Source: Brachyspira aalborgi | GTDB lineage: Bacteria > Spirochaetota > Brachyspiria > Brachyspirales > Brachyspiraceae | Assembly (NCBI RefSeq): GCF_008016455.1 | Contig: NZ_SAXU01000001.1 | Coordinates: 1,488,001-1,552,000, forward strand | DNA: 64,000 nt | Direction of reading: 5' to 3' | Shown here: piece by piece, positions 33,487 through 63,226 of the stretch | How the letters are laid out: each line of letters begins with the position of its first letter | Numbering within the stretch: the stretch's first letter is position 1 | Translations under genes and position numbers: made by a program | Notes under the pieces: model-generated | Seen by the model: only the letters and a program-made list of their open reading frames with translations | Databases searched by the model: none | What the model was told of the DNA's origin: nothing

Positions 33487-33762
33487 ATGATTAATCTAAT
33501 TTATACTATCATGAACGCAACGCAACGCAACGCAACGCAACGCAACGCAACGCAACGCATTAGCGAAAATTTATTTAAAATTATTTTTTCACGCTCTCAA
33601 TTACGCGTCTTTTATAATATTAATTTATTCAAAAAATATCATTATATTTTTTATAAAAATTTAAATTTTTGGAGGAACAATTATGAGTTTAAAAGGAAAA
33701 GTTGCTTTAGTAACAGGTTCGGCAAGCGGTTTAGGAAAAGCTTCCGTGCAAAGATTATCTAA
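33487..33762 (+). CDS. Near-leaderless leader ORF through AACGC array
   Basis: ATG at 33487 lies 6 nt after the -10 box, so initiation would be leaderless; there is no ribosome-binding site. It encodes MINLIYTIM, then (NATQR)x3 from the pentamer array, then 67 more codons ending at 33762, i.e. 80 nt inside the dehydrogenase gene in another frame. With one more unit (n=1 mod 3) the ORF would instead stop at 33662-33664, 18 nt before the dehydrogenase ATG. With n=2 mod 3 it stops at once (TAG 33561). It is probably a regulatory leader peptide rather than a functional protein. Whether it is translated is not known. Confidence 0.45.
   Translation: MINLIYTIMNATQRNATQRNATQRISENLFKIIFSRSQLRVFYNINLFKKYHYIFYKNLNFWRNNYEFKRKSCFSNRFGKRFRKSFRAKII
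33514..33558 (+). repeat. Pentanucleotide array AACGC x9
   Basis: Nine exact tandem AACGC (GCAAC) units in the 5' leader of the 3-hydroxybutyrate dehydrogenase transcript, about +28 to +72 from the predicted start. No stop in any frame within the array. Confidence 0.97.
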
Positions 33763-36300: not shown

Positions 36301-36998
36301 ATGAAAATTACGATAAATAACAATACTGTAAATTTGTTAAGCAAAGCAAAGCAAAGCAAAGCTTAAGCAAAGATGCTAAAGATGTGTATCAGAAAGGGGG
36401 GTTAAGCGCCGATGCGGATGTCAGCGCGCAAATCGGTTATATGTTCCAAGTCAAAGAAGGCTTCGGAATAAGCGTTTTGGGTGAATTAGGTTATAGCTGG
36501 GATATTTACAGTATGGGCTATGGCGATACAACGGTATCAGGTGTTAGTGGTAGCTATATCGCTAAAGACGGGGTTGATTTTATTCAATACTATCATAGCT
36601 TCAAAATTGGATTATTGCCTAAATTCAATATTGGTTTAGGAGGAAGACATGGACTTGCTATAGGAATTGGCGGAGGAGTTAAAATCCCTCTTGCTGGAAA
36701 ACAGTCGCTTACTGTTACGACAGCAGGCAATAATCATGCAACAAGCGAAGACGCTAAAACACAAACCGATATTGCCCTTAAAAGAAAAGACATAACCGAT
36801 ATGTTCTCGCCTTCAGTTATCGGATACATGAAAGTGACTTTCGATTATTATTTGTTCTTCACGGATAATATCGGCATGAATTTCGGTTTATATTTGGCTG
36901 GAGATTTTGGTCCGAAGCTTAAAGATACAAAGGTTAAGATAAACGACTCTTTTGACATCGGGCTTCAATTAGGATTTAGATTTGGTCCGAAAGCTTAA
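36301..36998 (+). CDS. Outer-membrane beta-barrel protein, currently out of frame at GCAAA array
   Basis: The ATG at 36301 follows a good ribosome-binding site (GGTGAGGAAAG) but hits a TAA at 36364 directly after the array. The main open frame (36384-36998 from a GTG) encodes ~204 residues of barrel protein: QIGYMFQVKEGFGISVLGELGYSWD, LPKFNIGLGG, KVTFDYYLFFTDNIGMN, LAGDFGPKLKD, LQLGFRFGPKA. It is paralogous to the protein at 11100-11822. Removing one pentamer (or adding two) joins the ATG in frame: ...LLSKAKQSLSKDAKDVYQKGG. Even then no signal peptide is visible, so the N-terminus may be rearranged or export unusual. Has its own terminator. Confidence 0.7.
36341..36362 (+). repeat. Pentanucleotide array GCAAA x4 (plus partial unit)
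   Basis: Four exact GCAAA units plus GC, inside the first 20 codons of the outer-membrane protein gene; the flanks on both sides carry TTAAGCAAAG. The present count causes an immediate stop; 3 or 6 units would be in frame. Confidence 0.95.
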
Positions 36999-39725: not shown

Positions 39726-40427
39726 TTATTGCGATAAACTATACCAATCGTTATAATTTTTATCCACAGCGGATAAGAATACATCGATAACAGATTTTAT
39801 AGCTTTATCGTCTACAAAAATAACATATTCGTAGCCTTTATAAAATATATTTATAGAATCATCCCTTAAACATTTATAATTGCATGCGCTAGAATCAAAA
39901 TAGGTTTTAAATGTTTTAAGATTATTAAAAGTAGAAGATTCATTTCTTAAAATAATTTTTTTAGGCTCTCCATAATAATCGGGCAACTTTCCCGACTCTC
40001 TTGTATCGTTATAAAAAATATTTTGTCTTAAACCCGAAACCTTATATAAATATAAATCTTCTACTCCAACTCTATCTTGAGAGTAAAATCTTGTTTGCAA
40101 CAATATTTTTGGATTATCTTTACTCGTATTAAAATAACTTATGCCTTTAAGTTCAACCGATATAAATATTTTTCCATGCGGAGTATCCGTTGTGTATATA
40201 AATGCAAAAACCATTTTTGGCAAATATGTAATTCGATTATTTTCCCATATTATATTTAAACTCTCTTCTTTTTGAGTAGAATATAAAAATTGAGCTTCTT
40301 TAAAATTTAAAGCTTCATCTCCAAAACAATTTATATTAATCGCTAATAATAAAATTAAAATCGTTATTGTTAGTTTAATTATTTTTTGTTTTGAACTTAA
40401 AAATCTATTGTCTATTTTATTATTCAT
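39726..40427 (-). CDS. Secreted protein of unknown function
   Basis: A 233-residue protein. A hydrophobic stretch at ~17-35 (KLTITILILLLAININCFG) after a charged N-terminus acts as a signal peptide, with a possible lipobox-like ININC. The body is beta-rich and Asn/Lys-rich (GKIFISVELKGISYF, GYEYVIFVDDKAIKSVID), with a lone CNYKC motif. No family recognised. AAGGAA precedes the ATG at 40427. The gene lies downstream of the minus-strand promoter at 40722-40750 and the GCAAA array, so its expression may depend on array length. Confidence 0.6.
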   Translation of the reverse strand: MNNKIDNRFLSSKQKIIKLTITILILLLAININCFGDEALNFKEAQFLYSTQKEESLNIIWENNRITYLPKMVFAFIYTTDTPHGKIFISVELKGISYFNTSKDNPKILLQTRFYSQDRVGVEDLYLYKVSGLRQNIFYNDTRESGKLPDYYGEPKKIILRNESSTFNNLKTFKTYFDSSACNYKCLRDDSINIFYKGYEYVIFVDDKAIKSVIDVFLSAVDKNYNDWYSLSQ

Positions 40428-57638: not shown

Positions 57639-57741
57639 TAAATTTCAATTCCTTAAAATATTATTAATTATTAAAACCGTTTATAAAGAATAACATTAAA
57701 ATAATTTATATGCAACCGATTATATAATATATTTTTTGAAA

Positions 57742-58503
57742 TTATAAATCAATATTATGATTTTTTATAAAAATTAAATCGCAATTATTATCCATAAGTT
57801 TTTTATAACCTTTTGAATTCATTAATTCTAAAATTTCATTATAATTTTCATTATATTCTACCGTTATTAAACCGAAAGAATATTTATCAAAATCGATACT
57901 TCTTAATACATCCAACTCGCCGCCTTCTATATCTAAAGACATAAAATCTATATGATTAATATTTTTATAATTTGACATAAGCTCTTCAAATGTTATAGTA
58001 TCAACTTCGATATATTCCATATTATTATCGCTTTCTCTTTCAATTCTTTCTTTATGTCCTGAAGTATTATGAGTATCCAAAACATCCAATACTCCGACTG
58101 TGGAAGTTAAAAATTTTGCTTTTCCAATATTTTTAGAACTCACGGCGCAATTATACAAATCGCATTTTCTATTTTTCTTAAGCGCTTCAAAAGTTTTTGG
58201 ACTTGCTTCAACGCAAAAACCGTCCCAGCCTAATTTTTCAAATATATATGTATTGCTTAAATTTATTCCGTCATAAGCGCCAATATCTATATAAAAACCG
58301 TTCTTTTTATTTTTCAAACATAAATATGCTATAATATCTTGTCCGAATTGTCCTTTAAAATCTAAACCGTAAGTATTAGACATTATTTGCAAATTTAATA
58401 ATAATGAGTTTTTTTCTTTAGATTTTAATAACTTTCTAATATTGTTTCTTAATTGTCTAAACGGTATCCACCAAACTATTCTGTCTATAATATTTGAATT
58501 CAT
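57742..58503 (-). CDS. FkbM-family SAM-dependent methyltransferase
   Basis: A 253-residue protein. SAM motif GFYIDIGAYDGINLSNTYIFEKLGWDG (~70-96), CVEASPKTFEALKKN, and the C-terminal FMSLDIEGGELDVLRSIDF block are FkbM hallmarks. Such enzymes methylate sugars or polysaccharides, so a cell-surface glycan target is plausible. AAGGAG ribosome-binding site at 58516-58511 sits directly after the stop of the upstream leader ORF. The leader carries the 26-unit array. Confidence 0.9.
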   Translation of the reverse strand: MNSNIIDRIVWWIPFRQLRNNIRKLLKSKEKNSLLLNLQIMSNTYGLDFKGQFGQDIIAYLCLKNKKNGFYIDIGAYDGINLSNTYIFEKLGWDGFCVEASPKTFEALKKNRKCDLYNCAVSSKNIGKAKFLTSTVGVLDVLDTHNTSGHKERIERESDNNMEYIEVDTITFEELMSNYKNINHIDFMSLDIEGGELDVLRSIDFDKYSFGLITVEYNENYNEILELMNSKGYKKLMDNNCDLIFIKNHNIDL

Positions 58504-58516
58504 TATTGAACTCCTT

Positions 58517-58852
58517 TTATAAATTTTTTTTATTTATGATTAAATTAAAATTAAGACTAAATTTAAATTGCTGCCTAAATATTTTCATATTTAATAAATG
58601 CATTATTAAATATGAATTTAAAAAATCATAAGAAAATGATTTAATATAATATTGATTTTTTGATAAATTGAATAAAAAGTTTAAATTATTCGCAAGGCAA
58701 GGCAAGGCAAGGCAAGGCAAGGCAAGGCAAGGCAAGGCAAGGCAAGGCAAGGCAAGGCAAGGCAAGGCAAGGCAAGGCAAGGCAAGGCAAGGCAAGGCAA
58801 GGCAAGGCAAGGCAAGGCAAGCGTCAAAAATATAGTATAAATCGTTATTCAT
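58517..58852 (-). CDS. Near-leaderless leader ORF through 26-unit pentamer array
   Basis: ATG at 58852 is 9 nt after a -10 TATAAT, so the mRNA would be almost leaderless. It reads MNNDLYYIFDA, then (CLALP) repeats from the array, then 57 further codons to the TAA at 58517-58519. That stop directly abuts the ribosome-binding site of the FkbM gene (13 nt from its ATG). The other two frames stop within 11 nt after the array (TAA in both). At 26 units, translation would reach the FkbM start region; at other counts mod 3 it would not. The Cys/Leu/Pro peptide itself is unlikely to be a functional protein. Confidence 0.45.
   Translation of the reverse strand: MNNDLYYIFDACLALPCLALPCLALPCLALPCLALPCLALPCLALPCLALPCLANNLNFLFNLSKNQYYIKSFSYDFLNSYLIMHLLNMKIFRQQFKFSLNFNLIINKKNL
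58692..58821 (-). repeat. Pentanucleotide array of 26 units (GCAAG plus strand, CTTGC minus strand)
   Basis: 26 exact tandem units, 130 bp, in the 5' leader of the FkbM methyltransferase transcript. It is the longest of four related arrays and the one most likely to vary in length. Confidence 0.97.
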
Positions 58853-58861
58853 AATGGTATT

Positions 58862-58889
58862 ATTATAACATTAATTAAATTTTTGTCAA
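58862..58889 (-). promoter_or_regulatory. Promoter of array leader and FkbM gene
   Basis: On the minus strand TTGACA (58889-58884), a 16-nt spacer, TATAAT (58867-58862): near-perfect consensus, directed into the array and FkbM. Confidence 0.75.
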
Positions 58890-58907
58890 ATAATTAAATC
58901 TCAATGA

Positions 58908-58935
58908 TTGCATTTTTTTATAAAAGATATAAAAT
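58908..58935 (+). promoter_or_regulatory. Possible promoter of MATE gene
   Basis: TTGCAT (58908-58913), a 16-nt spacer, TAAAAT (58930-58935), 38 nt before the MATE ATG, divergent from the FkbM promoter. Confidence 0.45.
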
Positions 58936-58972
58936 ATTTTTCACTTTTTGATTTTATAAGGACTTCTTAAAA

Positions 58973-60349
58973 ATGGATAATAATTCTAAAATGATGGAAC
59001 TTACAAGCGGAAATGTTAATAAAGGATTAATAAAATTAGTAATTCCTATGATTTTGGCAAATCTTTTGAATATAGCCTATAATATAGTAGACACTATTTG
59101 GATTGGACAAATGGTTGGAAAGAGCGGACTTGGAGCGATAGCCGTTAGTTTTCCTATAATATTAATATTGCTTGCCATAGCTTCGGGCATTACGGTTGCG
59201 GGAAATATTTTAATCGGACAATATTTCGGAGCTAACGATAACGATTCGGTTTTGTATATTTCAAGAGTAGCGACAACTATAAGCGTAATATCGGCAATAG
59301 CTTTGTCTTTAATCGGTTATATATTTGCGCCGCCTTTAATGAAATTTTTAAACGCGTCCGAAAGCATAATGGAATATTCGGTTAGTTATTTTAGAATTAG
59401 TATGATTGGTTTTCCTTTTATGTTTTATTATTTTTTAGTAGCGGCTTTATTAAGAGGAATAGGAGACACGATTCGTCCTTTAATATTTTTGGCTATAGCT
59501 TCAATATTGAATATAATATTGGACCCTTTAATGATAGCTGGAATAGGACCTTTTCCAAAAATGGGATTAGACGGCGCAGCTTATGCGACTGTATTTTCTC
59601 AATTTATTTCCGTAATAATTAGCATGATATATTTAAAAATGAAAAATAGCATAGTGAGAGCGAATCCTTTAAGAATAGTTTTTAATTTGAAAATAACTAA
59701 ATTAATGTTAAAAATAGGAATGCCTTTTGCGGCTATGCAATTAATCGTTTCGATAAGTTGGCTTTTCTTAAATAGATTAATAAACTCTTATGGAGAATCC
59801 GCATCCGCTTCTATTGCAGTTTCTATGCGAGTAGATTCTTTATCTTTTTTGCCTTTAATGGCTTTATCTGCTGCAATCGCTACAATGGTGGCTCAAAATA
59901 TCGGAGCGGATAGAATGGATAGAATAAAATCTATATATAAATCGGGATGCATAATTGGAATATGCATTTCGTCTTTTATGGCTTTATTTTCCGTTATGTT
60001 TCCAAAATTAATAGTTAGAATGTTTACAAGCGATATGAGTATTTTTGAATATACGAGAGATTATATATATATCGTTATGCCATCGATTATTTTTCTTTCG
60101 GTTATGTTCGCTACAAACGGAGTGATTAACGGAGCGGGAAAAACTTTTACTCTTATGCTTTTCAGTTTTATATCTCTTATTATTATAAGAGTTCCTTTGG
60201 CTTATTTTTTATCTTCTAAAATCGGCATTGTAGGAATATGGACATCTATGGGAATAGTTAATTTTATTAGTATGAGTTTAAGTTTGACTTATTATTTTTC
60301 TAATAAATGGAAAAAGAATGCAAATATAGCTTCACAATCCGCGGTATAA
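58973..60349 (+). CDS. MATE-family multidrug/cation efflux transporter
   Basis: A 458-residue protein with 12 membrane segments. It starts NVNKGLIKLVIPMILANLLNIAYNIVDTIWIGQ, with family blocks LRGIGDTIRPLIFL (~161) and MVAQNIGADRMDRIKS (~300). Exports drugs or organic cations using Na+ or H+. AAGGA ribosome-binding site. Convergent with folA; the two stops are nearly adjacent. Confidence 0.94.
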   Translation: MDNNSKMMELTSGNVNKGLIKLVIPMILANLLNIAYNIVDTIWIGQMVGKSGLGAIAVSFPIILILLAIASGITVAGNILIGQYFGANDNDSVLYISRVATTISVISAIALSLIGYIFAPPLMKFLNASESIMEYSVSYFRISMIGFPFMFYYFLVAALLRGIGDTIRPLIFLAIASILNIILDPLMIAGIGPFPKMGLDGAAYATVFSQFISVIISMIYLKMKNSIVRANPLRIVFNLKITKLMLKIGMPFAAMQLIVSISWLFLNRLINSYGESASASIAVSMRVDSLSFLPLMALSAAIATMVAQNIGADRMDRIKSIYKSGCIIGICISSFMALFSVMFPKLIVRMFTSDMSIFEYTRDYIYIVMPSIIFLSVMFATNGVINGAGKTFTLMLFSFISLIIIRVPLAYFLSSKIGIVGIWTSMGIVNFISMSLSLTYYFSNKWKKNANIASQSAV

Positions 60350-60945: not shown

Positions 60946-61641
60946 TTAAGAATTTTCTCCGCCGATAAAATCCCAAAACTCTTCGGCAACTTTTAATTCT
61001 TTATCTAAATCAAGCATTCCTGCAAGCGTCCATCTTTCGTAAGGTTGTGGAGCGTAAGGATTATAAGGTATAGCTATCAAAGAATATACTTTTGAGTTAT
61101 AATTTTTATAAAGAGTAACCGCCGTCCATTCCAATAAAGTTCTTTTATAATTTTGAAATTCGCCTTTATTCGGTTTTGCAGTTTTTAAATCTATTAAGTA
61201 TATATTGTTATCAAAATCTTCCAAATAAATATCTACTCTTGTAGGTTTTATCTCTTTTGTTTCGCCTTCCCTACAAACTTTTTTAATCGTATTTATTTCT
61301 TTATTTTTATCTGGTTTTGCTTTTGCCGACACTAAATTACTCATTATATCGGTTATAACTCTTTGAGCTTCGGAAGTTATTATATTTTCAGGTTTAACTT
61401 GTTTGTCTACTTTTTTAAATCTTTTTTTTCCAATTTCAATTACTAAATTCTCAAATATAGCAGTTCCAAAATTTGTATTAAGGGAATGAATAAAAGAAAA
61501 TAAAGCCATTCTATCTTTCCCGAGCAGTCTTGTATGAAAAGGCATAGAATTAGTTTCTGGTTTATAATTTTTAAATTTATCTCTCAAAGTATTAAATAAT
61601 TTCTCTTTTATATTATTTTTTTGAATTTTGTTTAATGACAT
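60946..61641 (-). CDS. TdeIII-family type II restriction endonuclease
   Basis: A 231-residue endonuclease resembling TdeIII of Treponema denticola (GGNCC-type specificity in that enzyme, from memory). It starts NKIQKNNIKEKLFNTL, with SMPFHTRLLGKDRMALFSFIHSL. The PD-(D/E)xK catalytic core is visible as RVDIYLED...IYLIDLKTAKPN (Asp, then Asp-Leu-Lys, ~150-173), and it ends YNPYAPQPYERWTLAGMLD. It starts 2 nt after the methyltransferase stop. Cleavage specificity here is inferred only. Confidence 0.88.
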   Translation of the reverse strand: MSLNKIQKNNIKEKLFNTLRDKFKNYKPETNSMPFHTRLLGKDRMALFSFIHSLNTNFGTAIFENLVIEIGKKRFKKVDKQVKPENIITSEAQRVITDIMSNLVSAKAKPDKNKEINTIKKVCREGETKEIKPTRVDIYLEDFDNNIYLIDLKTAKPNKGEFQNYKRTLLEWTAVTLYKNYNSKVYSLIAIPYNPYAPQPYERWTLAGMLDLDKELKVAEEFWDFIGGENS

Positions 61642-61642
61642 T

Positions 61643-63226
61643 TTATAATTCCTTTAAGTGAAATATTATTTCCGAATATGCGGATTTATCTTTTTCGACT
61701 CTATTTAAAACAGGACGCTTAAATCTATTTACTATTTTCATTCCCGATAATTCGGCTATTTTAGGATACAAATCGTATTTATCATTTGCCACAATAAAAA
61801 TATTATAATTATCTTTCATATATTTTTTAGAATTATTTAAAACTTTTGCAATATCTTCAATATAAGATTGTTTAGCGATAGAACTTTGCCCTTTAGATAA
61901 AGAGCCAATTTCCAAATTATCATTTCTATTAATTTTAAATAAATCGTAAGCGTAAGCATGTTGCTCATGATAATCGATAAGTCCTATATAAGGCGGGCTT
62001 GTAAATATACCGCTTATTTTTTGTTTTTTTAGTAATTTATAAAAATTTTTATTTTCGGATAAACTTTTTATATTATCAAAAATATTCATGTTTCTTGCAT
62101 CTCCCGTAATGCATATTTGATAAGTGTCGGTTCTTAATTCTTTAAATTTCTTTAATCTTTTAATCGTGTCGCTCGAATAAACTTTTAACCATTTGTTTAT
62201 AGAAAATAATGGCTTGCATATTTTATAATGTTTTCTGCAATAATATGTTGAATTTATAGGTTTTAATAAAGTTCCCAAATCCGAATGCGTAGTCGCTCTG
62301 CAAGAACGCATTGTTCTGCTTAAAATTATTCTAACAATATTTTTAATTTTTTCGTCTTTTATATCGTTTATTAAATCGGATACAAATTCAAGTTCGCTTA
62401 TAATATTTGGAATATACCATTTATAAAGAAAAGTGCCATTTTTTTTATTATGCAAATTTATTTTATATTTTTTTATTAAATCGTTATAAACGCTTAAAAA
62501 TTCTTTCTCTCTTTCTTTGCCGTAAATATTATGATTTAATTTTTTATCTCTTACATTTTTTTTATATTCTATATTTGGAAAATTAATTTCGTTAAAAATA
62601 TTTAATCTATCGTTAAGCTCGTTTTCAAATTCAAAAATTTTATACGATAAAATATATTTTTTTAATTTTGAAGTAATATCTTTTAAAATCAATTCTAATT
62701 TTTCTAAATCTACATTTTCTATTTTGCAATTTGCAATCATTGTATTAAAATGCGAAATATCAATTCCAATAGCGTTTATATTTAATTCGTTAGCTTGCAC
62801 TAAAGTAGTTCCGCTTCCGCAAAAAGGGTCAAGTATAATATCGTTTTTATTAAAATAAATTTCTTTTTTAAAATTGTCAGTTTTAGAATTAAGAAAATAA
62901 TCTACAAGCTGCGGAATAAATTTCCCTTTATAAGGATGAAGTCTATGAACATGTTTAGTCGTGTCAATTTCTCTTAAATTGTCAAATGACAAATGCCAAT
63001 TTAAATCGTTCCCAAGTTTTTCTTTCCAATTTTTTTCTATTTTATTTTTATCGTAATATTTTTTTAATTCCGATTTTGAAATATAAATTATTCCTTCGTT
63101 AATAATTTTATTTATTATAGAATACTGCAAAAGATAATTAATATTTGACGGCGAAACCGATTTATTCATATAATTTGAAGCCCATTGACTAGCTTCGTTT
63201 AAGGTTATTAAATCCGATTTATTCAT
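61643..63226 (-). CDS. Site-specific DNA methyltransferase partner of TdeIII-type enzyme
   Basis: A 527-residue methyltransferase. An N-terminal helix-turn-helix-like region (~5-60, NEASQWASNYMNKSVSPSNI) precedes the catalytic domain. SAM motif ILDPFCGSGTTLVQANE (~110-126) comes before the catalytic TSPPY in IFTSPPYIGLIDYHEQH (~416), i.e. circular-permuted order relative to other types. TSPPY suggests N4-cytosine methylation. It would protect host DNA from the adjacent endonuclease. Lies 26 nt after thyA. Confidence 0.9.
   Translation of the reverse strand: MNKSDLITLNEASQWASNYMNKSVSPSNINYLLQYSIINKIINEGIIYISKSELKKYYDKNKIEKNWKEKLGNDLNWHLSFDNLREIDTTKHVHRLHPYKGKFIPQLVDYFLNSKTDNFKKEIYFNKNDIILDPFCGSGTTLVQANELNINAIGIDISHFNTMIANCKIENVDLEKLELILKDITSKLKKYILSYKIFEFENELNDRLNIFNEINFPNIEYKKNVRDKKLNHNIYGKEREKEFLSVYNDLIKKYKINLHNKKNGTFLYKWYIPNIISELEFVSDLINDIKDEKIKNIVRIILSRTMRSCRATTHSDLGTLLKPINSTYYCRKHYKICKPLFSINKWLKVYSSDTIKRLKKFKELRTDTYQICITGDARNMNIFDNIKSLSENKNFYKLLKKQKISGIFTSPPYIGLIDYHEQHAYAYDLFKINRNDNLEIGSLSKGQSSIAKQSYIEDIAKVLNNSKKYMKDNYNIFIVANDKYDLYPKIAELSGMKIVNRFKRPVLNRVEKDKSAYSEIIFHLKEL

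What the first reader, a model, noticed from the sequence alone, without database searches (positions are those of the whole stretch)
58501..58889. 26-unit pentamer array whose leader ORF ends on the FkbM ribosome-binding site
Near-consensus promoter, ATG 58852, (CLALP) repeats, and a 57-codon open tail ending TAA immediately followed by AAGGAG and the FkbM ATG. The other two frames hit TAA within 11 nt of the array. This is the clearest case of a frame-gated translational coupling device, on the longest and so most mutable array. The gene controlled may modify surface glycans.
Basis: partly seen in the sequence, partly recalled or inferred. Interest (0 to 1): 0.82.

Follow-up and report, generated by a model that had tools for sequence, protein, structure and literature searches.

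The report
Repeat-length switch before a glycan gene
A stretch of 26 five-letter DNA repeats sits inside a tiny gene just upstream of a probable sugar-modifying enzyme gene in an intestinal spirochaete, and losing or gaining one repeat should decide whether ribosomes reach the enzyme gene; the same layout, with different repeat words, recurs at dozens of surface-related genes across the whole genus.

Summary
A 12/12 consensus promoter, leader ATG 58852, 26.0 perfect CTTGC units, a 57-codon open tail and a TAA ending directly before AAGGAG and the FkbM ATG are all present; the other two frames stop 6 and 11 nt after the array.

It is not an isolated case. The genome has about 22 GCAAN arrays, and B. 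catarrhinii has 10. In 25 of 26 complete loci from the two genomes one tail frame is open to the next gene (2.5 expected by shuffling; 8 of 34 array-free genes). FkbM/'WWIP'-type genes in at least 13 other Brachyspira genomes carry the same layout with other units: 63 distinct arrays in a genus-wide sample, periods 4, 5 or 7, never a multiple of 3. One homologous array varies (10, 9, 4 or 0-1 units) among eight B. hyodysenteriae strains.

Many other species have an intrinsic terminator between array and gene, as in the proven Streptococcus gallolyticus pil1 switch. The window locus has none, so leader-to-gene translational coupling, or Rho polarity, is the likelier output.

Frame gating is well supported by comparison. 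The output mechanism, and any switching at this locus, are untested. I rate it a new variant of a known kind.

The parts
58884..58889 (-). -35 hexamer TTGACA of the leader promoter
   Evidence: 12 of 12 matches with the -10, spacer 16, extended TG
58862..58867 (-). -10 hexamer TATAAT; ends 9 nt before the leader ATG, so a leaderless leader mRNA is inferred
   Evidence: same spacing at L066, L086, L088
58517..58852 (-). Leader ORF, 111 aa in the present (predicted ON) frame, contains the array, stops 13 nt before the FkbM ATG
58692..58821 (-). Array of 26.0 perfect pentamers (CTTGC sense, GCAAG on + strand), stop-free in all frames, encodes (CLALP)n
58681..58688 (-). Two TAA stops (58688-58686 and 58683-58681) that close the two OFF frames 6 and 11 nt after the array
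58517..58691 (-). Tail: 57 codons open only in the ON frame (8 and 9 stops in the other two frames)
58584..58616 (-). A/T-rich hairpin in the tail (dG about -11), no T-run, so not a recognisable intrinsic terminator; not found at L088
58511..58516 (-). Shine-Dalgarno AAGGAG of FkbM, directly after the leader stop
   Evidence: predicted about 48% unpaired
57742..58503 (-). FkbM-family methyltransferase, 253 aa, with N-terminal IVWWIPFRQLRNNIR segment
   Evidence: homologous starts M..KIIDxIVWWIPxKKLR in other species
33514..33559 (+). Sister array AACGC x9.2 in a leader before an SDR dehydrogenase / GntP-like permease operon (gene start 33683); predicted ON; orthologue in B. catarrhinii has 3.8 units
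   Evidence: L085
40618..40670 (-). Sister array AGCAA x10.6 in a leader before gene 39726-40427; open tail ends 22 nt before that start; predicted OFF
36339..36362 (+). Short array x4.8 of the same cassette family ahead of a probably 5'-truncated outer-membrane-protein-like gene

Best explanation
This is a slipped-strand phase-variation switch built into a leader ORF. One promoter drives leader and FkbM. Ribosomes start at ATG 58852 and translate the stop-free pentamer array. If n mod 3 = 2 (23, 26, 29) they continue through the tail and stop at TAA 58517, on top of the FkbM Shine-Dalgarno, and feed FkbM translation by coupling or re-initiation (ON; the sequenced state). In the other two frames they stop within 11 nt of the array, leaving about 165 nt of untranslated RNA before the start, so FkbM expression should fall (OFF). 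Gain or loss of one 5-nt unit flips the state. Shown by sequence: the anatomy, its recurrence, non-multiple-of-3 units, frame-specific absence of stops, and variable array lengths in paralogues, orthologues and B. hyodysenteriae strains. Inferred: slippage at this locus, the size of the ON/OFF difference, coupling as the output step, and FkbM acting on surface glycans.
For: Anatomy. Recurrence: about 22 GCAAN arrays in the genome and 10 in B. catarrhinii Z12; 25 of 26 complete loci have one tail frame open to within 22 nt of, or through, the next start, 2.5 expected from shuffles, 8 of 34 in array-free 5' regions (Fisher p 7e-9, or 3e-4 on about 10 independent tail families). Stops per codon 0.003 (ON) against 0.105/0.131. 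The tail frame survives many length differences between loci, while dN/dS of 0.63 is no lower than a shifted control (0.66), so openness rather than peptide sequence seems kept. Genus: WWIP/FkbM-type genes in many species have arrays of different units with the same plan; 63 distinct arrays have periods 4, 5 or 7 only. Orthologues L192 (CAAGC x8.4) and L208 (ATACT x6.2) keep array position and tail end with a different unit. Length changes with near-identical flanks: G009 paralogues 10.8, 11.8, 13.8; B. hyodysenteriae 10, 10, 10, 10, 9, 9, 4, about 1. Predicted ON about 19 of 66, near 1/3.
Against: No expression data. The FkbM SD is only weakly structured in the model, so basal FkbM translation in the OFF state may be substantial. 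No second strain of this species was available, so length variation at this array is unproven. The leader may be leaderless and poorly translated. Many GCAAN loci share ancestry, so the counts are not independent. 8 of 34 ordinary 5' regions also show an open frame.
Confidence: 0.72

Rival explanations
1. Frame gating works through transcription rather than re-initiation: in the OFF frames the 165-nt untranslated tail lets Rho (or RNases) stop or destroy the transcript before FkbM (polarity).
For: A rho gene scores far above cut-off. Class A loci (e.g. L067-L070, L072, L077) have the ON frame running in frame through the downstream start, which looks less like stop-start coupling. Tails in this clade are long (mostly 150-200 nt) where other species with terminators have about 90 nt.
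Against: The tail is not C-rich over G (14 C, 12 G); no direct test; the leader stop lies exactly at the SD here, and as ATGA overlaps at several other loci, which is the coupling signature.
Confidence: 0.35
2. The locus is a strict pil1-type attenuator: leader translation melts an intrinsic terminator in the tail.
For: Proven for Streptococcus gallolyticus pil1 with GCAGA repeats (PMC3894217). About 18 array loci in other Brachyspira have a terminator (dG -12 to -27, T-run) between array and gene, with most OFF stops 20-85 nt before it and the ON stop in or past it; 0 of 20 array-free WWIP genes do.
Against: At the window locus no terminator-like site is found; the only strong hairpin (dG about -11, 76-108 nt after the array) is nearly all A/T, lacks a T-run and was not found at L088. 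None of the 26 GCAAN tails shows a terminator-grade hairpin.
Confidence: 0.12
3. The array is a neutral or merely spacing repeat; the open leader is a chance ORF in A/T-rich DNA.
For: A/T-rich tails can be open by chance (p about 0.014 for this tail alone; 8 of 34 controls). SSRs can act through promoter spacing in other bacteria.
Against: The array is downstream of the promoter; 25 of 26 loci share the plan; no period is a multiple of 3; stops are excluded from one frame only.
Confidence: 0.05
4. Classical in-ORF phase variation: the array region encodes the N-terminus of the FkbM protein or of a functional leader peptide.
For: Some relatives do carry arrays inside the ORF (L012, L183 and lipoproteins L071, L089).
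Against: At this locus no array length fuses leader and FkbM: the ON leader stops before ATG 58503 in another frame, and homologues start at the same M..KIIDxIVWWIP position with their own SD.
Confidence: 0.04

Closest known systems
Streptococcus gallolyticus pil1/pil3 leader-peptide phase variation with attenuation (Danne et al. 2014, PMC3894217)
   Same: Pentamer array (GCAGA) inside a short leader ORF between promoter and gene; unit gain/loss changes the leader stop position; longer leader = ON; length differs among strains; surface genes.
   Different: pil1 needs a stem-loop terminator between array and gene, which the window locus lacks; pil1 leader has an SD, here the leader is probably leaderless; pil1/pil3 are two loci in one species, here a genus-wide set with changing units and many targets.
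Classical SSR phase variation inside a coding sequence (e.g. Haemophilus mod and lic genes, Neisseria opa; general knowledge)
   Same: Stop-free arrays of non-triplet units, slipped-strand logic, surface and glycan genes.
   Different: Array lies in a separate leader ORF; the gene's own frame never changes.
Translational coupling of adjacent cistrons (stop-start overlap; general knowledge, definition as in PMC3711429)
   Same: Leader stop adjoins or overlaps the downstream SD/ATG (window -13; ATGA overlaps at L075, L078, L079, L082, L085).
   Different: Upstream cistron is a dispensable repeat leader whose frame is mutable.
Brachyspira VNTR typing loci (MLVA schemes cited in PMC3751851 and PMC8116685)
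   Same: Known that tandem repeats vary among Brachyspira strains.
   Different: Used as typing markers; no role in gene switching found in the held papers.

Membership tests
pil1-type SSR leader attenuator (S. gallolyticus) | Promoter followed by a short leader ORF that contains the repeat array | tested here: met
pil1-type SSR leader attenuator (S. gallolyticus) | Unit length not a multiple of 3, so that unit changes move the leader stop | tested here: met
   5-nt unit; stops at +6, +11 or +175
pil1-type SSR leader attenuator (S. gallolyticus) | Intrinsic terminator between array and first gene | tested here: not met
   0 terminator-like sites in window 57700-59100; met in about 18 loci of other Brachyspira genomes
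pil1-type SSR leader attenuator (S. gallolyticus) | Array length varies among isolates and correlates with expression | not testable with these tools
   No second strain of this species and no expression data; length variation seen at a B. hyodysenteriae plasmid array
Translational coupling | Upstream stop within re-initiation distance of downstream start | tested here: met
   TAA ends 13 nt before ATG, abutting the SD
Translational coupling | Downstream start poorly used unless upstream ORF is translated (for example hidden SD) | tested here: inconclusive
   SD about 48% unpaired; mean 0.41 over GCAAN loci, 0.47 over other array loci, 0.58 in array-free WWIP genes
Classical in-ORF SSR phase variation | Array lies in the coding frame of the regulated protein | tested here: not met
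   Leader and FkbM frames differ and are separated by stops for every n
FkbM family methyltransferase | Match above curated cut-offs | tested here: met
   PF05050 81.2 bits vs 22.7; TIGR01444 50.5 vs 37.7

The most novel reading that the evidence does not exclude
Brachyspira as a genus runs a large stochastic switchboard: leader ORFs with interchangeable non-triplet repeat arrays gate dozens of glycan, lipoprotein and outer-membrane genes. Two output modules occur: ribosome-melted terminators in many other species, and terminator-free stop-start coupling or polarity in the clade of the window genome. Repeat units are replaced over evolution while the gating geometry is kept.
Probability: 0.55. 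Interest if true: 0.82.

Novelty: new variant of a known kind. Interest (0 to 1): 0.7.

Why it matters
SSR-in-leader switching has one proven precedent that I could find, two pilus loci in S. gallolyticus. A genus-wide set in intestinal spirochaetes would make it a general strategy, would predict which surface glycans and lipoproteins vary from cell to cell in a gut-colonising genus with no phase-variation mechanism in the held literature, and would offer natural replicates (swapped units, with and without terminators) to separate coupling from attenuation. It also warns that assemblies and annotations in this genus record one random ON/OFF state and miss the leaders.

Tried and rejected
My first impression that arrays were limited to this genome and B. 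catarrhinii (2 of 26 for GCAAN) was wrong: other species use other units. Fusion of leader and FkbM: rejected for all n. Tail as a conserved functional peptide: dN/dS 0.63 in frame against 0.91 and 0.66 in shifted readings, so no clear amino-acid constraint. SD hiding as general coupling mechanism: weak trend only. Tail hairpin of the window as intrinsic terminator: no T-run. Shared genomic position: in all other genus genomes FkbM was not found beside the SurA-like gene, so the locus is genome-specific in place. Viral contigs hold no such cassettes. Genome-contig scan hit only B. catarrhinii Z12 and may leave out near-own records, so the species of the window could not be named; size and GC resemble B. 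aalborgi (PMC6779451), unproven. B. hyodysenteriae plasmid arrays were read only as about 3.5-kb stretches. The array there sits at the 3' end of a fucosyltransferase ORF, so it shows length change, not leader gating.

Full report
WHAT IS THERE. All details of the finding check out. On the minus strand a 12-of-12 sigma-70 promoter (TTGACA 58889, TATAAT ending 58862) lies 9 nt before ATG 58852, so the leader mRNA is probably leaderless (inference). The leader enters 26.0 perfect CTTGC units (58692-58821), leaves with 57 open codons, and stops at TAA 58517, directly before AAGGAG; the FkbM ATG is 58503. TAA codons close the other two frames 6 and 11 nt after the array. No terminator-like site and no second promoter-like site on this strand lies between array and gene. 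The gene product matches FkbM methyltransferase models.

THE GENOME. The window is part of a 2.50-Mb Brachyspira genome. Pattern searches find about 22 arrays of at least four GCAAN units. The draft genome G006, whose contigs match B. catarrhinii Z12, has ten. Their flanks are one dispersed family: short leader ORF, DNA motif ATACTRTA before the array, pentamers, tail, gene with its own SD. Targets include lipoproteins, outer-membrane-like proteins, an ABC transporter ATPase, an SDR/GntP operon, a glycosyltransferase-61 protein and FkbM.

THE TEST. In each complete locus I asked whether one of three frames stays open from the array to the next start. It does in 25 of 26; dinucleotide shuffles expect 2.5, and 8 of 34 array-free 5' regions do (Fisher p 7e-9; 3e-4 if tails are collapsed to about ten families). 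The ON frame has 0.003 stops per codon, the others 0.105 and 0.131. Where it ends varies: in frame through the internal start (class A lipoproteins), as ATGA or TAATG overlap, or a few nt before the SD as here. The tails are not under clear amino-acid constraint. So what is kept is an open path for ribosomes up to the next gene.

THE GENUS. Homologues of the FkbM N-terminus (WWIP segment) in other Brachyspira genomes have arrays upstream with other units: CAAGC, CCAAG, ACAGC, ACAAC, AACAC, AGTCA, AAGTC, GACAA, TCAAA, ACAATCA, AAGC and more. Among 63 distinct arrays in these stretches the periods are 4, 5 or 7; none is 3, 6, 9 or 12. About 37 of 45 leader-type loci have the open frame ending near the start, against 10 of 34 controls. 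The orthologues L192 (window genome, CAAGC) and L208 (B. catarrhinii, ATACT) keep array position (80 and 81 nt before start) and tail end (88 and 89) with different units.

A SECOND OUTPUT MODULE. In about 18 loci of other species a strong intrinsic terminator lies between array and gene (tool-confirmed for L159 and L262; fold z-scores about -5). Most OFF stops fall 20-85 nt before it (in a few loci the second-longest frame also enters it); the ON stop falls inside or past it in most. Only one WWIP gene scored as array-free has one (L174), and its contig begins inside an apparent array. This matches the proven pil1 switch of S. gallolyticus: GCAGA repeats in a leader whose translation melts a terminator (PMC3894217). 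None of the 26 GCAAN tails has such a terminator; the window hairpin lacks a T-run.

VARIATION. Array length differs with near-identical flanks: three tandem paralogues in G009 carry 13.8, 11.8 and 10.8 units; an AGACC array at one site on plasmids of eight B. hyodysenteriae strains has 10, 10, 10, 10, 9, 9 (one mutated), 4 and about 1 units with 99.6-100% identical upstream flanks. That array is at the 3' end of a fucosyltransferase ORF, so it shows mutability, not gating. Predicted states are about 19 ON of 66, as for random frames (p 0.51). The window's own array could not be compared within its species.

MECHANISM AND VERDICT. Frame gating of FkbM by a leader ORF: well supported by comparison (0.72), not by experiment. 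Output: stop-start coupling is my first choice for this locus because the stop abuts the SD and there is no terminator; Rho polarity is a serious rival (rho present; 165 nt untranslated when OFF). It works like the pil1 switch but fails one defining feature, the terminator, so I do not file it as a member. New: the terminator-free form, the genus-wide spread and the swapping of units. I found no earlier report in the held literature; subscription papers are largely missing there.

Noticed in passing
L067-L077, L078; G000 C1 (15 places): TTTGCCGAGAAATCGGTGAGGAAAGTTTGATATG, a GNRA-like hairpin (CCGA-GAAA-TCGG) right before the leader SD, occurs 15 times in this genome and in no other genus genome at up to 3 mismatches.
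   Followed up: partly
L127 (G000 C1:1971328) and L128 (G000 C1:1835529): Cassettes with the array collapsed to 1.8 units or interrupted; in L127 the tail is still open into the outer-membrane-protein gene.
   Followed up: partly
L143:2000-2050: CTCAT x10.2 array in a leader overlapping (ATGA) a gene that looks like a YidC/Oxa1-type membrane protein.
   Followed up: no
L132/L144 (G000 C1:2004284-2004460): CTCAT array interrupted by a run of N (assembly gap or masked stretch) upstream of a second WWIP gene, leader ending in an ATGA overlap.
   Followed up: partly
L071, L089: Arrays encode the basic n-region (SKAKQ) of lipoprotein signal peptides directly: classical in-ORF version next to leader versions.
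   Followed up: partly
L130:2932-2978, L186 near 779: GCAGA arrays (the same unit as S. gallolyticus pil1) at the 3' ends of ORFs, both followed by the same short tail VMFEYAYRKTA*; the WWIP-like segment also occurs at C-termini of such ORFs.
   Followed up: no
L264-L271 (B. hyodysenteriae plasmids): AGACC array at the 3' end of an alpha-1,2-fucosyltransferase ORF varies between strains (10, 9, 4, about 1 units).
   Followed up: yes
L087, L090: Long insertions (about 140-160 nt) inside leader tails that keep the open frame.
   Followed up: no
60946-63226: TdeIII-like restriction endonuclease next to a DNA methylase gene, near the FkbM locus.
   Followed up: no
36339-36998: Array cassette joined to an outer-membrane-protein-like gene that seems to lack its signal peptide; probably a remnant.
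   Followed up: no
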